This document shows, in pieces, positions 28,972 through 44,519 of a stretch of DNA of 64,000 nucleotides (position 1 is the stretch's first letter; every line of letters starts with the position of its first letter). The translations under genes were made by a program, and so were the position numbers. The stretch spans positions 1 to 64,000 of the IMG/VR virus record IMGVR_UViG_3300017730_000002; one strand, written 5' to 3'. The notes under the pieces are model-generated. The model saw nothing but the letters and a program-made list of their open reading frames with translations. It ran no database searches and was not told the DNA's origin. This DNA comes from a virus.

Positions 28972-31188
28972 TTATTTAATGTTTTTAAAGGCAGATCTTT
29001 TTCGACCATTGCTTTTTAATCTTTTGTTTTTCCTACCCATATGAGTAAACGGACTACTATTTAATTTAAACAAATTTTCTGACTTTTGCAACTTTTTAGC
29101 AGCGTCATCTCTTATGATTTGTTTAGTATAACCTCTATTAGATTCTTGTATTCTCATAAAAGACACAAGTGCTACAAATGATACTAATCTATCCACGTTA
29201 ACTCCATCTGCATATTCTTGCATTTCTTTTATAAGCATTGGATCAGGAATTCTTTCTATTCCATAAGTTGTTCTAACAACAGTTCCATCCTCTTTTGTTT
29301 CTTGATCAAGTTCTTCCCTTACAAACTCTATCCCATAACTAAGAAGGTGTGATTTGAATAAAGTACCTGTATTTTTCCAACCATATTCTTGAAATACATT
29401 TTTGTTAGCACCTAAATCTTTTAAAAACATTATCTGACTTTTAGGAACTAGATACTTTTGTTTCTTTCTACTTATCATATAGTTAATAAATAAAGAAATG
29501 TTATTCTCTATAACAGTCCATGCATTATACCATTCTATTATAAGTTCTAGTCTTTGATGAGTTTGTTTTATATCATCAAACCTTCCGCACCATGCAGCTA
29601 CAATTTTACTTTGTTCAATATAAGTTTCTGTTTCAGTACCTGTTACTTTAGTAACCTCTATAGAATTTTTTATTACATATATAGAACATAGTGAATCAGA
29701 TGTAGTAGTCTTACCTTCAGCCACAGGGTCAATAGACGCATAATAAGTTCCAAAATCAGGCTTTTCCTTATTAGGTCTTTCCCATACTACAAGACAGCCT
29801 GTTTTATCTTCGGTCTTTTTGTTTACTGGAAACTCACGTATAGGTTGCTTATTGCTTTTTGTAACAGTTGGTTTACCATTAGCATCTGTTGTTATATCTA
29901 GAAACTCATAGGCATATTCTTTTTCCTCTATTCTTCTAGCTTGTGCAGAAAGAAGGTGTGTAGGAAAAACAGAAACAGATCTATTATCAAATGCTTCTTT
30001 TATATTTCTAGGATGCTGAGATATTCTCAATTGATAATCTTCTGGAGCTAGTTCTCTTTTCCAATCATCAAATTGTTTTTGTAAAGCTACAGTAGCTTCT
30101 TCTACTTTAGAGTTGCCATATTCATCTATGTGTGGAGGCATTGACCATTGCTCAGGAATAAATAAACCTGACATACCTTCAGTACCTTTATGATCTATCA
30201 AATTAGTTTCTACAGAATAAACATCTTTAGAAGTTGGATTAAGAATCATATCCTTGAGTGGATTGCATTGTGACAGGTCACCCACAGATCCTGCTGCTAT
30301 AAATAATCCTGTAGTAGTTAGTCCTGATCTCATTGCTGGTCTCATATACTCGTATGTCTTATCCATCTTAGGCGCAATCCCAGCTTCCTCATGAAAGAAG
30401 TATTTTACTGGACCCCCTACACCATTTGTTGGATCTTTTTCAAATGACATACCTTGTATAGTTCCTTTAAGACCTACTTCAGTTTTTCTGTTACCTTTCC
30501 TAACCTCAATCTTCTGCTGCCACATCATTACCTTACTAGGGTTCATTGGTCTGTACCATGCAGTATGTTCATTTAAGAATGCTGCATACTCATCTAAGAA
30601 CTTCCAGGATCCTTTCTCATTAATGTAATCTTTAAGACTAGCACCTATCTTTAGTGTTACCCCTGGCTCAAACCATTGCTGATTAATAAGCTTTGCCATA
30701 TGATAATAGGAAGATGCTATCTGACGTTTCTTTAGTATAGCAACATGTTTATAGTTTAGTTCTGCTAGCATCTCATATAATGCCATATGATATTGAGCAT
30801 CTCTAATATCAGCAAACCCAAACTTTTGTATTTCTTTATTGAATATAGGTAAGAAGTTTAACCACATGTAGTAGTCTCTTGCTATATACCAAACTTTATC
30901 TTTTGATTTAAATATTACTCCTTTCCTGCACTTCTTTTTTTCTCCTTCCCAATAATTAATAAAATCTCTTGATTTAAATGGAGCTGCACAATAGAATCCT
31001 TGTGTGTTAAATTTAGTAGCTTCTGCATTAAATTCTTTAGACACTTTATCAAATGCATACTGACCTGGTTCCTTAAACAGATCTCTTACATAAGTAGCAA
31101 AGTCTTCTCTAGTATCAAAGTCTGTACTAGTCCATTTACCATTATCCCATGTAGGAATATCTTGATATATCTCTGTATCATTGGTCAT
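28972..31188 (-). CDS. terminase large subunit
   Basis: This 738-residue TerL carries an ATPase domain with a deviant P-loop KKRQIASSYYHM (about residues 153-164) and a Walker B-like strand VKYFFHEEAG (261-270), where His-Glu-Glu replaces Asp-Glu. A downstream coupling region GLFIAAGSVGD is present, and a C-terminal RNase H-fold nuclease starts at FGTYYASIDPVAEG (catalytic Asp487). It powers DNA packaging with the adjacent portal. The basic C-tail (KNKRLKSNGRKRSAFKNIK) is notable. It overlaps the upstream 171-residue gene by 11 bp. Confidence 0.85.
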   Translation of the reverse strand: MTNDTEIYQDIPTWDNGKWTSTDFDTREDFATYVRDLFKEPGQYAFDKVSKEFNAEATKFNTQGFYCAAPFKSRDFINYWEGEKKKCRKGVIFKSKDKVWYIARDYYMWLNFLPIFNKEIQKFGFADIRDAQYHMALYEMLAELNYKHVAILKKRQIASSYYHMAKLINQQWFEPGVTLKIGASLKDYINEKGSWKFLDEYAAFLNEHTAWYRPMNPSKVMMWQQKIEVRKGNRKTEVGLKGTIQGMSFEKDPTNGVGGPVKYFFHEEAGIAPKMDKTYEYMRPAMRSGLTTTGLFIAAGSVGDLSQCNPLKDMILNPTSKDVYSVETNLIDHKGTEGMSGLFIPEQWSMPPHIDEYGNSKVEEATVALQKQFDDWKRELAPEDYQLRISQHPRNIKEAFDNRSVSVFPTHLLSAQARRIEEKEYAYEFLDITTDANGKPTVTKSNKQPIREFPVNKKTEDKTGCLVVWERPNKEKPDFGTYYASIDPVAEGKTTTSDSLCSIYVIKNSIEVTKVTGTETETYIEQSKIVAAWCGRFDDIKQTHQRLELIIEWYNAWTVIENNISLFINYMISRKKQKYLVPKSQIMFLKDLGANKNVFQEYGWKNTGTLFKSHLLSYGIEFVREELDQETKEDGTVVRTTYGIERIPDPMLIKEMQEYADGVNVDRLVSFVALVSFMRIQESNRGYTKQIIRDDAAKKLQKSENLFKLNSSPFTHMGRKNKRLKSNGRKRSAFKNIK

Positions 31189-33909: not shown

Positions 33910-34608
33910 TTAAATCTTACCCTCAGCCTCTATTTGTTGAATCATTTGAAAGTGAACTTTTGCTATTCTATCTCTACCTTCTTCAGATAAAAGATACTTG
34001 TGACAATTATCTGAGTTGGTCATAAAGAAGTTTTCAGAAAGTATTGCAGGCATAGAGGTATTAATAAGAACATAAAAATTAGATTCTTGATCTACATCTC
34101 CATCTCTGTATGTATCAGATCTCATATACTCACCTTTAAACTCTCTAGCTGCCTTTTCAAAAAGAACTGTTGCTATATCATCTGATTTAGTTTGCCCTTG
34201 AGAAGTGTATACACACCATCCATTTGCTGACTCGTCAGTATATCCATTAGCATGTACACTTACATATATACATCGTTTTTGAGAAGACTTGGCTAATCTA
34301 TTAGCAGTATCTACTCTTTCTGTTAAACTAACATCTTTTGGAGTATCTACCAGGTTAATGGCATCTATACCATTAGCCTCACATTTTTTCATTAATCTAT
34401 CTACTATAGCTCTATTAAATTCGCCTTCAAATAATTGTGTGCCATCTGGCCATACTGGAGATCTTTTACCAGGAGTTTGATAAACATCATCTATCATACC
34501 TCCATGACCATTATCAAGTATCCAAAGATATTTAGATTCAGTTTCATGTGGTGTAATAGACATATCAAATTCTGTCTTACAATGAGGGCATGTTATAATT
34601 TTTTCCAT
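33910..34608 (-). CDS. N-acetylmuramoyl-L-alanine amidase (Amidase_3), endolysin
   Basis: 232 residues. The Amidase_3 zinc and catalytic residues are visible: ILDNGHGG (His35), LFEGEFN (Glu61), YVSVHANG (His119) and ILSENFFMTN (Glu192). The N-terminus has a CPHC pair (ITCPHCKTEFD), half of a zinc knuckle, ahead of the catalytic domain. No signal peptide, so release probably needs the holin-like protein upstream. It cleaves the bond between muramic acid and the peptide stem. Last gene of the lysis cassette, closed by a terminator. Confidence 0.85.
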   Translation of the reverse strand: MEKIITCPHCKTEFDMSITPHETESKYLWILDNGHGGMIDDVYQTPGKRSPVWPDGTQLFEGEFNRAIVDRLMKKCEANGIDAINLVDTPKDVSLTERVDTANRLAKSSQKRCIYVSVHANGYTDESANGWCVYTSQGQTKSDDIATVLFEKAAREFKGEYMRSDTYRDGDVDQESNFYVLINTSMPAILSENFFMTNSDNCHKYLLSEEGRDRIAKVHFQMIQQIEAEGKI

Positions 34609-40207: not shown

Positions 40208-40494
40208 AATGACTGTATTTCTTTTAATAATTTCTCGACATACAACGTAGCATCCATTAACTCTTCTTGTAAGTGAGTTAACCACTGCTTCATAGTTAAA
40301 TCTTTTCTATCTAGAGTCTTTCCATACTTAAGCTTGCCTGTCTCAGATCTTTCCTGATACTTCTCAAGTACAGATTCTACTATAGTATCTTCTTCAACTG
40401 GCGGAATCGGGATAACACCATCTGTCATATTACCATATACAGAGTTACCATGCATCTCCTTATACCAATCTTTAGCTGATTCTTTTATTGCCAT
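40204..40494 (-). CDS. MazG-like nucleotide pyrophosphohydrolase-related protein
   Basis: 96 residues. The helix LTHLQEELMDATLYVEKLLK carries the E-E-x-x-D spacing of all-alpha NTP pyrophosphatases, and KLKYGKTLDRKDLTMKQWLT is the usual preceding segment in phage members of that family. Only one of the two metal-binding helices is evident, so this is a minimal member. Would hydrolyse (d)NTPs or regulate nucleotide pools. Confidence 0.5.
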   Translation of the reverse strand: MAIKESAKDWYKEMHGNSVYGNMTDGVIPIPPVEEDTIVESVLEKYQERSETGKLKYGKTLDRKDLTMKQWLTHLQEELMDATLYVEKLLKEIQSL

Positions 40495-40787
40495 ACCATT
40501 ACAATATCATGTACTAATACCATCATCTTGATTTTGCCGTCTATATCTATGATTTCAGCATTATGAAGGGCACCAGTACGGACATATACCTTATCCCCTG
40601 CCTTTAGATCTTTAACTTCATCCCCTACTGCAAATATATTAAGATGAGTCCACTCCTTCATCATTTCTTGCTCTGCTTCTTTTTCTAGATTATCTGGAAC
40701 AATAAGATCTAGTTCACCTTCTTTTTTTTCTTTTTTCTCAGGCTTATCTAGCATAATCCTGTTTCCTCTTAATATAAATTTGCTCAT
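40485..40787 (-). CDS. GroES-like co-chaperonin
   Basis: 100 residues from ATG 40787 (a TTG at 40808 is in frame but less likely). FILRGNRIMLDKPEKKE, the mobile-loop-like Glu/Lys region, then VGDEVKDLKAGDKVYVRTGA and a final VLVHDIVMVWQ match the Cpn10 beta-barrel order, as in T4 gp31-type phage co-chaperonins. Presumably assists host GroEL in folding the capsid protein. It has a promoter immediately upstream. Confidence 0.7.
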   Translation of the reverse strand: MSKFILRGNRIMLDKPEKKEKKEGELDLIVPDNLEKEAEQEMMKEWTHLNIFAVGDEVKDLKAGDKVYVRTGALHNAEIIDIDGKIKMMVLVHDIVMVWQ

Positions 40788-40805: not shown

Positions 40806-40834
40806 CAAATATAATAAAAATTATTTATCCTCAA
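40806..40834 (-). promoter_or_regulatory. promoter TTG-N18-TATATTTG upstream of the GroES-like gene
   Basis: Minus strand: TTG (40834-40832), 18 bp, TATATTTG (40813-40806), about 19 bp before the ATG. Same TTG-N18-TATATTTG arrangement as the promoter of the isolated gene at 60131. It fits the Bacteroidota consensus. Confidence 0.6.
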
Positions 40835-41687
40835 AGTTGTACATAATATTTCCATCACCATCTATTACCAAACCTTTGTAATCTTGTTTTACTTCTTGAC
40901 CCATTAAGTTATATCTTCTTGGATCCGTAAATACACTACGGTATACATACACGGGACCAAAGGTTTCTTCTTTACCATCTATATCAATCTGAATTAACTT
41001 ATAGTAGTTATATCCATATTCTATACGTGTATCAAAGTATTTATATGTTAGTTCTGTATTACTAAACCCCGCTGCAGGAATCTCATCCTGGTACCCCCAG
41101 GTGGTTCCATCCAAAGATTTATATAAATCAAACTTCAGTGAGTTGTTTTCTGATGCTGTAACCCATTTAACCATATTACCTTGGTCTTGCAAGCTTGCAG
41201 AGAAATCCAACATTTCAACAGGTAATGGCGCTGTATTCCTAATTTCAAAAAAATCAATATGGCAATATTTACCATCTAACAAACCCGATCCAAACGTAGT
41301 ATTAAGAACTAACGCAAAAGCTAATGTTGTATTAGGAACAGTAATCATGTAATATCCATTAAGATCAGATATATCATAATAAAACCAACCACTATCATAA
41401 AAATACAAAGCAAAGACATCACCTAGCCTTACATTACTTTCCTGATACCACGAGACCTCCACTTCTGCATATGTACTAAAATCATATATAGGTGACTGAA
41501 ATACATAAAATTCATTTTCCAAATAGTTACCAGAAAGGTTATAACATAGATCACCACTGTGTGAACCAGTGTTGCCACCAGGGCTTGTCCACTCATCAGG
41601 ACCATCAAATGAGTCAAAAGGTTCAAAAATCTGACCATAACCAAATAAACATAACAGTGTAAATAATAAGAGTAATATAGTTTTCAT
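40821..41687 (-). CDS. secreted protein resembling Bacteroidota T9SS cargo
   Basis: 288 residues from ATG 41687. The signal peptide (MKTILLLLFTLLCLFGYGQ) ends in the YGQ/Q pattern common in Bacteroidota. A jelly-roll-like beta domain follows, then PLPVEMLDFSASLQDQGNMV KWVTASENN (given in pieces), the linker that precedes type IX sorting domains in host cargo. The end, RRYNLMGQEVKQDYKGLVI, resembles a type A T9SS sorting signal (YNLxGQEV...KGLYI). This is unusual for a phage. It could be acquired from a host and act on the surface of the infected cell or be packaged in the virion. Confidence 0.6.
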   Translation of the reverse strand: MKTILLLLFTLLCLFGYGQIFEPFDSFDGPDEWTSPGGNTGSHSGDLCYNLSGNYLENEFYVFQSPIYDFSTYAEVEVSWYQESNVRLGDVFALYFYDSGWFYYDISDLNGYYMITVPNTTLAFALVLNTTFGSGLLDGKYCHIDFFEIRNTAPLPVEMLDFSASLQDQGNMVKWVTASENNSLKFDLYKSLDGTTWGYQDEIPAAGFSNTELTYKYFDTRIEYGYNYYKLIQIDIDGKEETFGPVYVYRSVFTDPRRYNLMGQEVKQDYKGLVIDGDGNIMYNFEDK

Positions 41688-42034
41688 ACTATAAGATAAC
41701 AATATCTGCGGACATTCCCAAGTGTAATGGATCTACGGAGGTAGAAATGTTCTATGCAAGACATTGTAGTGACTCTTGTATCAGATGGCCCCCACCACCT
41801 ACCACCCTGTTGGTACCCCCCTATGATTTGTACAGGAGAATGTGTTTTTGCTGACACAAAACCAAAAAAGCATGCTGCTGAGAAAAGTTTAGCAGGGTTG
41901 TGCAAGGTGCAAGACACAGTGGTGCTTTGTGTTGTGTAGTTTCTTTTTGTTTAGTTTGTAGATTATCCTCTGTCACATGGATTAAGTTCCATAACAAGAT
42001 AAGACTGTAAAGTCCAGTATAAAGCAAACTCCTA
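41688..42034. other. divergent intergenic region between late (minus) and early (plus) modules
   Basis: About 350 bp with higher GC than the flanks and no convincing gene. A plus-strand frame at 41754-41939 (or from 41821) is Cys-containing and ends just before a TTTCTTTTTGTTTAG box, so a peptide cannot be excluded. Hairpin ACACA...TGTGT precedes that box. Likely holds divergent promoters and possibly the start of the small-RNA string. Confidence 0.4.
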
Positions 42035-42083
42035 AGCCCTACAAGTTGAAATCATATACACTTGAGGGCTTTCTTTTTTTTTA
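42035..42083 (+). terminator. hairpin and T9 tract closing small unit 1
   Basis: AGCCCT (42035-42040) pairs with AGGGCT (42065-42070), followed by TTTCTTTTTTTTTAG. The preceding 95 bp (41958-42034) shows no ORF and may be a small RNA. Confidence 0.6.
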
Positions 42084-42214
42084 GTTTGTAAAGTTTTATA
42101 CTATTCAAAGAAACAATCACCTTGTGTGCACAAGTGGGTGGACAGCATTGTTGAGAAGAGTATATGTAATTAGGGACAATGTACAGTAAGGTACATCCCT
42201 TTCTTTTTTTTTAG
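42084..42214 (+). ncRNA. candidate small RNA unit 2
   Basis: About 115 bp without an ORF, starting with the leader-like GTTTTATACTATTC. It ends in hairpin AGGGA(caa)TGTAC-agtaag-GTACATCCCT and a T9 box. CTTGTGTGCACAAG (42121-42134) is a further palindrome. Interpreted as a terminated small transcript; expression unproven. Confidence 0.4.
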
Positions 42215-42329
42215 TTCTGAGGTGCAATGCAAACCTCCCGCTAAAGCACTTAGCCTTTAACACACACATAAGGGGAGGAACATTCTCAGACGTGAGAGAA
42301 AACAATGGTTAAGGCCCATTGTTTTTTTT
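42215..42329 (+). ncRNA. candidate small RNA unit 3
   Basis: No ORF. Hairpins GAGGT-gcaatgcaa-ACCTC and TCTCA-gacg-TGAGA precede a strong terminator AACAATGG-ttaaggc-CCATTGTT followed by T8 (42301-42329). A separate TTTC-T9-AG box follows. Confidence 0.45.
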
Positions 42330-42374
42330 GTGTTGTTTCTTTTTTTTTAGTGTTGAACTTTTAAAACCCATACT

Positions 42375-42548
42375 ATGAAAAATACTAAAGTTCAAATCTT
42401 TTCTGTTCCTTGTAATGAGGCTGAAGCCATTACTGCGGTTCAGAAAAAGATTAATCAGTGGCTTACCACTGGCTTATTAATCAAATATGAAATGCACACT
42501 ACTGCTACTCATATTGTGTTTAATGTTGCATTGAGAAAAGAGGCTTAG
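42375..42548 (+). CDS. 57-residue small protein
   Basis: ATG at 42375 in TACTATG context. Product MKNTKVQIFSVPCNEAEAIT, then VQKKINQWLTTGLLIKYE and a beta end (HTTATHIVFNVALRKEA). A compact alpha/beta peptide. Its TAG stop lies inside the terminator stem AGAGGC-ttag-GCCTCT. Small early protein of unknown role, possibly host takeover. Confidence 0.5.
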   Translation: MKNTKVQIFSVPCNEAEAITAVQKKINQWLTTGLLIKYEMHTTATHIVFNVALRKEA

Positions 42549-42571
42549 GCCTCTTTTGTTTCTTTTTTTTT

Positions 42572-42690
42572 ATTAACTAAGTAGTGTAACACCTTAAAAC
42601 GATTATATCCTTGATGTGCTAGTGTGCATAACCACACAGGTTTATTAGAAGTCCTTAAAAGTAGCGGAGGAGGTGGCACTACTTTTTTCC
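42572..42690 (+). ncRNA. candidate small RNA unit 4
   Basis: No ORF. Hairpin GTGTG-cataac-CACAC is followed by terminator AAAAGTAG-cggaggaggtggca-CTACTTTT with T6, then a distinct TTTC-T9-AG box at 42693. Confidence 0.4.
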
Positions 42691-42727
42691 TTTATTTCTT
42701 TTTTTTTAGTTAGGAAAATTATATACT

Positions 42728-42868
42728 ATGAGAAAGAAACATTTGATACCCGTTGTTTGGTTTAGTGTAATTATCCTAATTGCAACACTATTATGTTCCT
42801 GTGGATCAGGAAAAGTTAGCTGTGATGCATATGGTTCAATTGATAACACTGAAATAGATAAGGCTTAA
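42728..42868 (+). CDS. 46-residue lipoprotein (paralogue of the one at 48066)
   Basis: ATG in TACTATG context. MRKKHLIPVVWFSVIILIAT then LLCSCGSGKVSCDAYGS: basic start, one membrane span, lipobox ending at Cys, followed by a short Cys-containing tail. The CGSGKVSCDAYG segment is repeated as CGTGQVSCDAYG in the protein at 48066. TAA is inside terminator stem AAGGC-ttaaca-GCCTT. Candidate envelope-located early protein, for example superinfection exclusion (inference). Confidence 0.55.
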   Translation: MRKKHLIPVVWFSVIILIATLLCSCGSGKVSCDAYGSIDNTEIDKA

Positions 42869-42906
42869 CAGCCTTTTCTTTTTTTTTAATTAATAAAATT
42901 AAAAAT

Positions 42907-42993
42907 ATGAAAACAGTTGGATTAGATACGTTTACTACAGTAATACTAATGACATACTTTGTATGTGGTTTAATAGTTGGTTTATGCAGTTAG
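42907..42993 (+). CDS. 28-residue membrane micro-protein
   Basis: ATG at 42907 encodes MKTVGLDTFTTVILMTYFVC then GLIVGLCS: one hydrophobic helix. TAG leads directly into terminator GGGGC-tctc-GCCCC and T9. The gene-box-terminator frame matches its neighbours, which supports it being real. Confidence 0.4.
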   Translation: MKTVGLDTFTTVILMTYFVCGLIVGLCS

Positions 42994-43046
42994 GGGCTCT
43001 CGCCCCTTTCTTTTTTTTTAATTGGGAAATTTTAAAATATAATACT

Positions 43047-43394
43047 ATGAATGAAGAAAAATTTATTGATGTAAATGGTTTCCAAGTTATGGACTTAGCT
43101 CCTGATATGCAAAGAAAGTTAGCTTTAGTTGATTTAGATGTGTTAGTTGAGATAACAAACTCACTTCAGAAAGTTAACTCTCGTATAATTAAGCAAGATT
43201 TAATTGCAGAACTTCAATCTGTAACTAATAATGGAGAACTAACGCGAATGCAACAGTTGCTGTATATTTGTGAAAAGTTTGTTACACTTCACAAGACTGT
43301 TTTGAAAATTCAAAATATTGAGCATCCTTTAAATGAAAAAGCAGTAGCTGACCTTAATCCAATTAAAGGTAAAGACATTAGTGACATAAGTTAG
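43047..43394 (+). CDS. 115-residue helical early protein
   Basis: Start ATG 43047 (TACTATG context) rather than an upstream in-frame ATG within the T-box. Helical, with DMQRKLALVDLDVLVEITNS and LQQ-type heptads, ending DLNPIKGKDISDIS. It has a T-box leader upstream and terminator GCCCC-ttcg-GGGGC downstream. No family recognised. The acidic-hydrophobic end resembles the ends of two other proteins in this module. Confidence 0.5.
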   Translation: MNEEKFIDVNGFQVMDLAPDMQRKLALVDLDVLVEITNSLQKVNSRIIKQDLIAELQSVTNNGELTRMQQLLYICEKFVTLHKTVLKIQNIEHPLNEKAVADLNPIKGKDISDIS

Positions 43395-43399
43395 TGTAT

Positions 43400-43427
43400 A
43401 GCCCCTTCGGGGGCTTCTTTTTTTTTA
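43400..43427 (+). terminator. UUCG-capped intrinsic terminator
   Basis: AGCCCC-TTCG-GGGGCT followed by TCTTTTTTTTT. Perfect C(UUCG)G tetraloop. Confidence 0.85.
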
Positions 43428-43447
43428 TTTGTGAAAACTTAATTACT

Positions 43448-43810
43448 ATGGAAGAAGAATTTAAAATGGTTTGTACTGCCTCTAAAGGCAGTTATGGCAC
43501 AGGGTTTGAAGACGTGTTTGATAACATTGAAGACCTTAAGAGAGCAATTGTAAAACACGAGTGTAATCCTTGGGATGAAGAAGACAACACTTATACAGAA
43601 GATAAGTATACTGATGAACTGTTTAAGGAGGTTTGCAAAGCAAAAGATTATACTGTTGTTATTGTAAAACTTCACTCATCAGAAAAGATATCATTTGATG
43701 AGTATGACGGGACATCATCTCCTTATATTGAGAAGATAGACCCTCAGTTTAAATCTGTAATGGAATATGCAACAGAAAGACATTGGGACTTATTGAACTC
43801 AAAGGAGTAG
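43448..43810 (+). CDS. 120-residue acidic early protein
   Basis: ATG 43448 in TACTATG context. Acidic (DVFDNIEDLKRAIVKHECNP, EDNTYTEDKYTDELFKEVCK) with a helical/beta mix. The C-terminus is VMEYATERHWDLLNSKE. No family recognised. Acidic DNA-mimic type proteins are common among early phage genes, so an inhibitory role is possible but speculative. Confidence 0.5.
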   Translation: MEEEFKMVCTASKGSYGTGFEDVFDNIEDLKRAIVKHECNPWDEEDNTYTEDKYTDELFKEVCKAKDYTVVIVKLHSSEKISFDEYDGTSSPYIEKIDPQFKSVMEYATERHWDLLNSKE

Positions 43811-43925
43811 CATTTCATAGTGCAGGGGGTAGTTCCCTTGCACTTTGTTTTGTGTATATACCACAATTTTTTTGCAAAAAATTGCATCTTCCTTTTTTCT
43901 TTTTTCTTAATTATGAAATTTATTT
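43811..43925 (+). ncRNA. structured spacer A (paired with spacer B)
   Basis: TTTCATAGTGCAGGGGG...CCCTTGCACT forms a hairpin (about 43817-43843). Downstream, CACAATTTTTTTGCAAAAAATTGCATCTT is an inverted repeat closely matching one in the spacer at 44440-44465. A diverged T-box follows before the next gene. Terminator/leader RNA or small RNA. Confidence 0.45.
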
Positions 43926-43928
43926 ATT

Positions 43929-44345
43929 ATGAAACATCAGAATTATTATTACAATTACAATTTTGCAACCAAGCAAGAAGGCTTGAGTTCATTAGACTTT
44001 GAAGAGTGTCTTAAGCAATGCACATTAGTTGCAGGTAACATAATGGCATTAGACCAATTTAATGCTATCGTACCTGTAGATGAATCCCAATGTGTGGACA
44101 TTCCTACTGCAACTGCCACTGCAAATGGCAATGGCACTTTCAGAGTACCTACCTATCCTATTGAGTTATTGGGAGACTTTACCGTAATAGAAAGAGAGTT
44201 TGACCATAGACCTTGGTTTAAATGTTGGGTAGGCAAGGGTGGATATACAATAGGGGAAAGAAATGTCAATAAAGGCTGTTTCTCTATAGTTGAAACTCAT
44301 AAAGGCTTTGTGCTGTATTTGGGACAAAGATACAGACAGTACTAA
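43929..44345 (+). CDS. 138-residue early protein, unknown
   Basis: MKHQNYYYNYNFATKQEGLS, then SLDFEECLKQCTLVAGNIMA, Thr/Ala-rich (DIPTATATANGNGTFRVPTY) and a beta C-terminus (REFDHRPWFKCWVGKGGYTI). A well-formed soluble protein of unknown family, flanked by two related structured spacers. Confidence 0.5.
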   Translation: MKHQNYYYNYNFATKQEGLSSLDFEECLKQCTLVAGNIMALDQFNAIVPVDESQCVDIPTATATANGNGTFRVPTYPIELLGDFTVIEREFDHRPWFKCWVGKGGYTIGERNVNKGCFSIVETHKGFVLYLGQRYRQY

Positions 44346-44519
44346 TATTTCATAGTGTGGGGTGTAATAGCCCTGCACTATAAATAGGTTGTCCCGTTGG
44401 GGCATAGGGCTATTGCTGTACACATATGTGGGTAATCACAATTTCTTTCAGAAATTGCATCTTTTCAGTTTCTTTTTTTTTATTTAGGAGTTTATTTATT
44501 AATTAATATATGATTTCAT
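44346..44519 (+). ncRNA. structured spacer B with 9-bp closing stem
   Basis: AATAGCCCT (44366-44374) pairs perfectly with AGGGCTATT (44406-44414), enclosing GTCCC-gtt-GGGGC. CACATATGTG palindrome and the CACAATTT...AAATTGCATCTT inverted repeat follow, then a T9 box at 44468. The start (TTTCATAGTGtGGGGT) resembles spacer A. Confidence 0.5.

What the first reader, a model, noticed from the sequence alone, without database searches (positions are those of the whole stretch)
40821..41687. Phage-encoded secreted protein with T9SS-cargo-like end
Signal peptide ending YGQ, the LPVExLxFxA...VKWxTASExN linker and a YNLMGQEV...KGLVI end look like Bacteroidota type IX secretion cargo. Such a protein on a phage suggests host capture and action at the cell surface, such as altering adhesion or blocking other phages.
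Basis: partly seen in the sequence, partly recalled or inferred. Interest (0 to 1): 0.65.

Follow-up and report, generated by a model that had tools for sequence, protein, structure and literature searches.

The report
Phage protein with host secretion tag
This gene lets a virus of flavobacteria make a binding-domain protein whose two end signals look like those the host uses to place its own proteins on the cell surface; more than a hundred related stretches in viral contigs carry the same tag system, usually in a shortened form that curated databases do not list.

Summary
The record is a 109-kb crAss-like phage. Profile models built without this protein or its closest relatives score it at 126 bits (2000 shuffles: at most 6.6).

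It is not a one-off. One scan found 105 related stretches in IMG/VR contigs; among the best 80, at least 15 unrelated payloads sit on the same FN3-tail module. All 62 ATG-started signal peptides obey the Bacteroidota Q-rule. The same module is chromosomal in T9SS-positive Flavobacteriales. The tail lacks the first half of the standard type A sorting domain and is missed by Pfam/NCBIfam. Phages favour it (49 of 54 non-redundant proteins; 15 of 91 bacterial ones). Among hosts it is lineage-restricted: 79/199 genomes of one order, 1/148 across the phylum.

Best reading: late-expressed, T9SS-exported surface or secreted binding protein. Superinfection exclusion or adhesion change is plausible but untested. 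Phage-borne T9SS cargo is already published (Cryophage 2020; crAss-like contigs 2019); new here are the short signal, its breadth, host restriction and conserved operon position.

The parts
40821..41687 (-). CDS, 288 aa, phage-encoded T9SS-cargo-like protein (P0001)
41634..41687 (-). Sec signal peptide, residues 1-18 (MKTILLLLFTLLCLFGYG), followed by Q19: fits the Bacteroidota Q-rule; no lipobox
   Evidence: sequence; 62 of 62 related phage proteins with an ATG-started signal peptide have the Q; Q-rule PMC5837995
41226..41618 (-). Payload: jelly roll resembling MAM (meprin) and the InhA2 MAM-like domain, residues 24-154
   Evidence: VIA-align Z 8.6-9.3 on model m6df07d4c898f; no Pfam hit
40932..41222 (-). 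FN3-type domain, residues 156-252 (LPVEMLDF...NYYKLIQIDIDG)
   Evidence: VIA-align Z up to 11, many FN3 chains; family alignment A3
40824..40925 (-). Short C-terminal sorting-tail-like segment, residues 255-288 (DPRRYNLMGQEVKQDYKGLVIDGDGNIMYNFEDK)
   Evidence: last ~12 residues diverge from the family consensus
41688..42962 (.). Divergent intergenic region; the CDS is the first gene of the leftward packaging/structural/lysis gene run
   Evidence: same head-of-run position in L008-L010
33910..34608 (-). Endolysin (Amidase_3) downstream in the same gene run; context, not part of the cargo
28972..31188 (-). Terminase large subunit (shows that the record is a crAss-like phage)

Best explanation
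A phage-encoded secreted protein that uses the host's own export route. Inferred steps: (1) it is made from the head of the late (packaging/lysis) operon; (2) the signal peptide takes it through Sec, signal peptidase I exposes Q19, and host glutaminyl cyclase caps it; (3) the short GQEV...KGL tail, equivalent to the last strands (motifs D/E) of a type A CTD, docks it on the host T9SS translocon (SprA/PorV); (4) the FN3 plus MAM-like part ends up on the outer surface or in the medium, where it binds a glycan or protein. The most likely benefit is to change what the surface of the infected cell binds, masking receptors and so excluding later phages, or keeping debris or kin from soaking up progeny. 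Shown by tools: the anatomy, the homology, the Q-rule pattern, the family's payload diversity, the conserved gene position, purifying selection, and chromosomal occurrence of the module in T9SS-positive hosts. Inferred: late timing, export, location, benefit.
For: The same FN3-tail module ends at or near the stop codon on at least 15 unrelated payload types in viral contigs. 9 of 85 viral proteins carry a full-length ~100-aa tail after the same FN3 in place of the short one; bacterial long tails after this FN3 match TIGR04183 in 40 of 40 scanned, so short and standard signals occupy the same slot. Q-rule 62/62 against 71/480 in other ORFs of the same contigs. Chromosomal homologues with the short tail lie among housekeeping genes in Crocinitomix and Lishizhenia isolates, and 6 of 6 genomes with the short tail that were tested encode SprA. 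The last 22 residues of HBP35 (motifs D and E) suffice for T9SS export of GFP (PMC4804311; PMC10202324). Recognised payload domains are mainly binding or structural types: CUB, MAM, Ig-like, PPC, G8. Gene position conserved in L008-L010.
Against: No curated T9SS model matches this protein, and profile similarity of short tails to standard CTDs is weak (hhalign E 0.002, probability 14%). In this protein the last ~12 residues (GDGNIMYNFEDK) are off-consensus, with only the terminal Lys; the leave-one-out alignment stops at residue 275-276. No tool shows export, anchoring or an effect on phages. The MAM assignment rests on a model of mean pLDDT 64 with Z about 9, little above background.
Confidence: 0.6

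Rival explanations
1. Lysis or envelope-disruption helper: a secreted or periplasmic late protein acting with the endolysin and spanin-like genes to open the outer membrane.
For: In L008-L010 the gene sits two genes upstream of an endolysin (PG_binding_1 + Amidase_2, tested in L008 and L009), and in the window it heads the run that contains an amidase, a holin/spanin-like protein and a small lipoprotein.
Against: Payloads vary widely across the family and recognised ones are binding-type domains; no lysis gene was identified beside the other members, though their neighbours were not annotated one by one; a surface-export tail is not needed for lysis.
Confidence: 0.12
2. Ordinary captured host adhesin or lectin that gives the infected host a benefit such as attachment or nutrient capture, with no role against other phages.
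For: Close architectural homologues are chromosomal in Flavobacteriales; published phage cargo includes glycoside hydrolases (PMC7468147).
Against: Gene position conserved across phages with TerL 68-73% identical and strong purifying selection suggest a phage function; no enzyme domain found in the payloads scanned.
Confidence: 0.2
3. The tail is not a T9SS signal; the protein stays periplasmic, or is a virion part that merely resembles cargo.
For: No curated CTD match; weak profile similarity; degenerate last residues in this copy; crAss-like phages carry other domains shared with host proteins, such as BACON (PMC6949934).
Against: Signal peptide with the Q-rule; short and long tails exchange after the same FN3; chromosomal copies in T9SS-positive hosts.
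Confidence: 0.18

Closest known systems
T9SS type A cargo (TIGR04183 / PF18962), e.g. RgpB, HBP35, RemA
   Same: Sec signal peptide, Ig/FN3-like domain before the tail, C-terminal GQ-V ... KG motifs at the end, relatives in T9SS-bearing Bacteroidota
   Different: Tail is about 35-42 aa instead of about 70-100; motifs A/B (PNP half) absent; no TIGR04183 or PF18962 match
Cryophage T9SS cargo genes (PMC7468147, 2020)
   Same: Phage-encoded proteins with T9SS sorting domains; host-system hijack and superinfection exclusion were already proposed there
   Different: Those carry recognised type A domains on an endoglucanase, a GH39 and a PA14 protein in a 76-kb phage; here a short uncatalogued tail on a MAM-like protein in a crAss-like phage
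crAss-BACON cluster 2 contigs with T9SS sorting-domain ORFs (PMC6949934, 2019)
   Same: T9SS sorting-domain ORFs beside the head section of crAss-like genomes
   Different: BACON repeats and a recognised sorting domain; left open there as needing further research
Cargo-like ORFs of the uncultured large-phage records LR745206, LR756502, LR756500, LR756504
   Same: Same FN3 module; the first two with a short tail
   Different: 462-642 kb genomes, different payloads; the LR745206 copy is split into two frames

Membership tests
T9SS type A sorting domain (TIGR04183/PF18962) | Match to the curated profile | tested here: not met
   No hit for P0001 at E<=10; TIGR04183 matches 2 of 50 family modules, best E 0.005, against 40 of 40 long-tailed bacterial controls
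T9SS type A sorting domain (TIGR04183/PF18962) | Seven-strand ~70-100 aa domain with motifs A-E | tested here: not met
   Tail is 34 aa; 76 of 85 viral proteins end 40-59 aa after the FN3 motif
T9SS substrate in the broad sense | Sec/SPI signal peptide | tested here: met
   Sequence; Q-rule 62/62 in the family. Prediction by hydropathy, no SignalP available
T9SS substrate in the broad sense | C-terminal D/E-like motifs at the extreme C-terminus | tested here: inconclusive
   GQEV...KGLVI present at the end, but the motif-E-like part is degenerate in this copy; hhalign E 0.002, probability 14%
T9SS substrate in the broad sense | Host has a T9SS | tested here: inconclusive
   Host unknown; 6 of 6 tested genomes with the short tail encode SprA
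T9SS substrate in the broad sense | T9SS-dependent export | not testable with these tools
   needs an export assay
crAss-like phage (Crassvirales-related) | crAss-like TerL, portal and capsid | tested here: met
   PHROG portal E 5e-94, TerL 2e-57, major head protein 5e-33; tblastn hits to crAss-like records at 23-33% identity; no tree built
MAM / meprin-type jelly roll | Fold match over most of the domain | tested here: inconclusive
   Z 8.6-9.3 over about 110 residues; model confidence good only from about residue 60; no Pfam MAM hit for the window protein
Fibronectin type III | Fold match over the domain | tested here: met
   Many FN3 chains at Z 8.6-9.4, rmsd about 2.5 over 84-95 residues; top rows up to Z 11

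The most novel reading that the evidence does not exclude
Flavobacteriales use a so far unnamed minimal T9SS signal (about 35 aa, motifs D/E only) and their phages have adopted it as a general-purpose tag, swapping unrelated binding domains in front of it to repaint the surface of infected cells. The tag would also serve as a marker of the phage's host lineage.
Probability: 0.4. Interest if true: 0.75.

Novelty: new variant of a known kind. Interest (0 to 1): 0.55.

Why it matters
How lytic phages of Gram-negative Bacteroidota act on the outside of the infected cell is largely unknown. A widespread phage tag that borrows the T9SS would give a general route for superinfection exclusion or surface change in a major aquatic phylum, would define a minimal T9SS signal that curated models miss (so many secreted proteins are unannotated), and would give a sequence marker that links uncultured phages to Flavobacteriales hosts.

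Tried and rejected
Single-sequence AlphaFold model (pLDDT 47): discarded in favour of the six-sequence model. PDB by sequence: no hit. First genome-contig scan with the single protein: no relatives. Idea that the short tail is phage-only: rejected, it is chromosomal in isolates such as Crocinitomix and Lishizhenia and found in 79 of 199 genomes of the order. Idea that all payloads share one fold by sequence: not supported (hhalign probability about 1% or less). Idea that short tails track T9SS-positive genomes across the phylum: could not be tested, only 1 of 148 genomes has the tail while 117 have SprA. Selection bias of the viral scan: repeated with FN3 only, no tail in the query; same result, 76 short against 10 long, although both scans used nearly the same DNA pattern and returned largely the same contigs. 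Other copies in this phage: none. Most IMG/VR contigs were not checked one by one for viral hallmarks.

Full report
What is there. The window is part of a 109,286-bp virus record. Its TerL, portal and capsid match crAss-like phages (PHROG E-values 2e-57, 5e-94, 5e-33; tblastn to Cellulophaga, Flavobacterium and gut crAss-like phages at 23-33% identity). The gene lies at 40821-41687 on the minus strand and encodes 288 aa. It is the first gene of a long leftward run with lysis, packaging and structural genes; the next genes on the other side, from 42963, run rightward.

Anatomy. Residues 1-18 are a Sec signal peptide followed by Q19. A six-sequence AlphaFold model (mean pLDDT 64) places a jelly roll at 24-154, closest to MAM domains of meprin and InhA2 (Z about 9), and an FN3 domain at 156-252 (Z up to 11). 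Residues 255-288 hold the GQEV...KGLVI tail and end at the stop codon. Pfam, NCBIfam and PHROGs give nothing for the protein.

Is it chance? A profile of the FN3-tail module built without the window protein and L008/L009 gives 126.2 bits; the best of 2000 shuffles gives 6.6. Tail alone: 25.9 against 11.4. Synonymous changes dominate in two close pairs (dN/dS about 0.05 and 0.12).

A large phage family. One IMG/VR scan gave 105 related stretches. In the best 80, the module sits at the C-terminus of proteins of about 230 to 1350 aa; payloads fall into 15 unrelated groups by BLASTP (this count includes three large-phage proteins from GenBank), with CUB, MAM, Ig-like, G8 and PPC among the recognised domains. 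All 62 distinct proteins with an ATG-started signal peptide have a Q at its end, against 71 of 480 other ORFs; the published average for Bacteroidetes hosts is 71% (PMC5837995). In the annotated phage collection only four records from uncultured large phages (462-642 kb) have clear matches, and no cultured phage does.

Short against standard tails. From the end of the FN3 motif to the stop, 76 of 85 viral proteins have 40-59 aa and 9 have about 100 aa; of 91 bacterial proteins, 15 are short. Non-redundant viral counts are 49 short, 5 long, and a repeat with an FN3-only query gives 76 short to 10 long. Long bacterial tails match TIGR04183 in 40 of 40 scanned; the short modules in 2 of 50, weakly. 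Profile comparison puts the short tail on the GQ-V and KG segments of the standard domain, weakly (E 0.002, probability 14%). This is the part that the literature calls motifs D/E and that suffices for export of GFP from HBP35 (PMC4804311; PMC10202324).

Hosts. The short tail is chromosomal, between housekeeping genes, in Crocinitomix algicola and Lishizhenia tianjinensis and in several Flavobacteriales MAG contigs. All six genomes with it that were tested have SprA. It is found in 24 of 40 genomes of the Crocinitomix family group (E<=0.001), 79 of 199 of its order (E<=1e-6) and 1 of 148 across the phylum (E<=1e-6), where 117 have SprA. So the tail is a lineage-restricted host signal that phages favour, and it points to a Flavobacteriales host for this phage (inference).

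Conserved position. Three other phages (L008-L010; TerL 68-73% identical to the window in L008 and L009, the TerL of L010 lying outside the fetched stretch) carry full-length orthologues (54-57% identity) at the head of the same gene run, two genes before an endolysin. In the window, other genes lie between it and an unrelated amidase.

Function. I commit to a late, exported, surface or secreted binding protein that changes what the infected cell binds; superinfection exclusion by receptor masking is the single most likely benefit, perhaps 0.3 on its own. Export through the T9SS is inferred, not shown. The weakest point is this copy's own C-terminus: its last 12 residues are off-consensus with only a terminal Lys, and the curated type A test fails. 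It should be called T9SS-cargo-like, not a type A member.

Known or new. Phage-encoded T9SS cargo was reported in Cryophage in 2020, with the same superinfection idea (PMC7468147), and T9SS sorting-domain ORFs near the head genes of crAss-like contigs in 2019 (PMC6949934). I found no description of the short tail, its spread or its lineage restriction in the papers searched, but the library holds open-access papers only.

Noticed in passing
window 41940-44482, + strand: Nine copies of TTTCTTTTT[TG]TTTA, all on the + strand and nowhere else in the 109 kb, several right after G+C hairpins (10 terminator-like sites against 1.1 expected in 40.7-43.1 kb), first four about 130 nt apart, later ones just before short ORFs. 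Looks like a row of small terminator-capped transcripts. Several units fold better than shuffles (z down to -4.4). Not in L008-L010, no Rfam match above threshold, no similar DNA in the phage collection.
   Followed up: partly
L043, L044, L049, L050, L053, L059, L064, L067: Two cargo genes in tandem, one of about 320 aa and one of about 520-660 aa with different payloads, each with its own FN3-tail module.
   Followed up: no
L003 4691-6369 (LR745206, 634-kb phage record): The cargo gene appears split by a frameshift: a 424-aa ORF with the signal peptide, then an overlapping ORF with FN3 and short tail in another frame; sequencing error or real break not resolved.
   Followed up: no
window 40485-40787: GroES-like ORF (PHROG 3188, E 1.6e-5) directly downstream of the cargo gene in the same gene run.
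   Followed up: no
window 33910-34608 vs L008 6737-7654, L009 4051-4974: Endolysin replaced by an unrelated type between relatives: Amidase_3 in the window, PG_binding_1 + Amidase_2 in L008 and L009, at similar positions in the gene run.
   Followed up: no
L074, L076, L084: Cargo genes whose signal peptide lies upstream of the first ATG, so a non-ATG start is likely.
   Followed up: no
virus record G000 76-109 kb (L173-L175): Very large leftward ORFs (1945, at least 3874, and 2103 aa), as in crAss-like phages; not identified.
   Followed up: no
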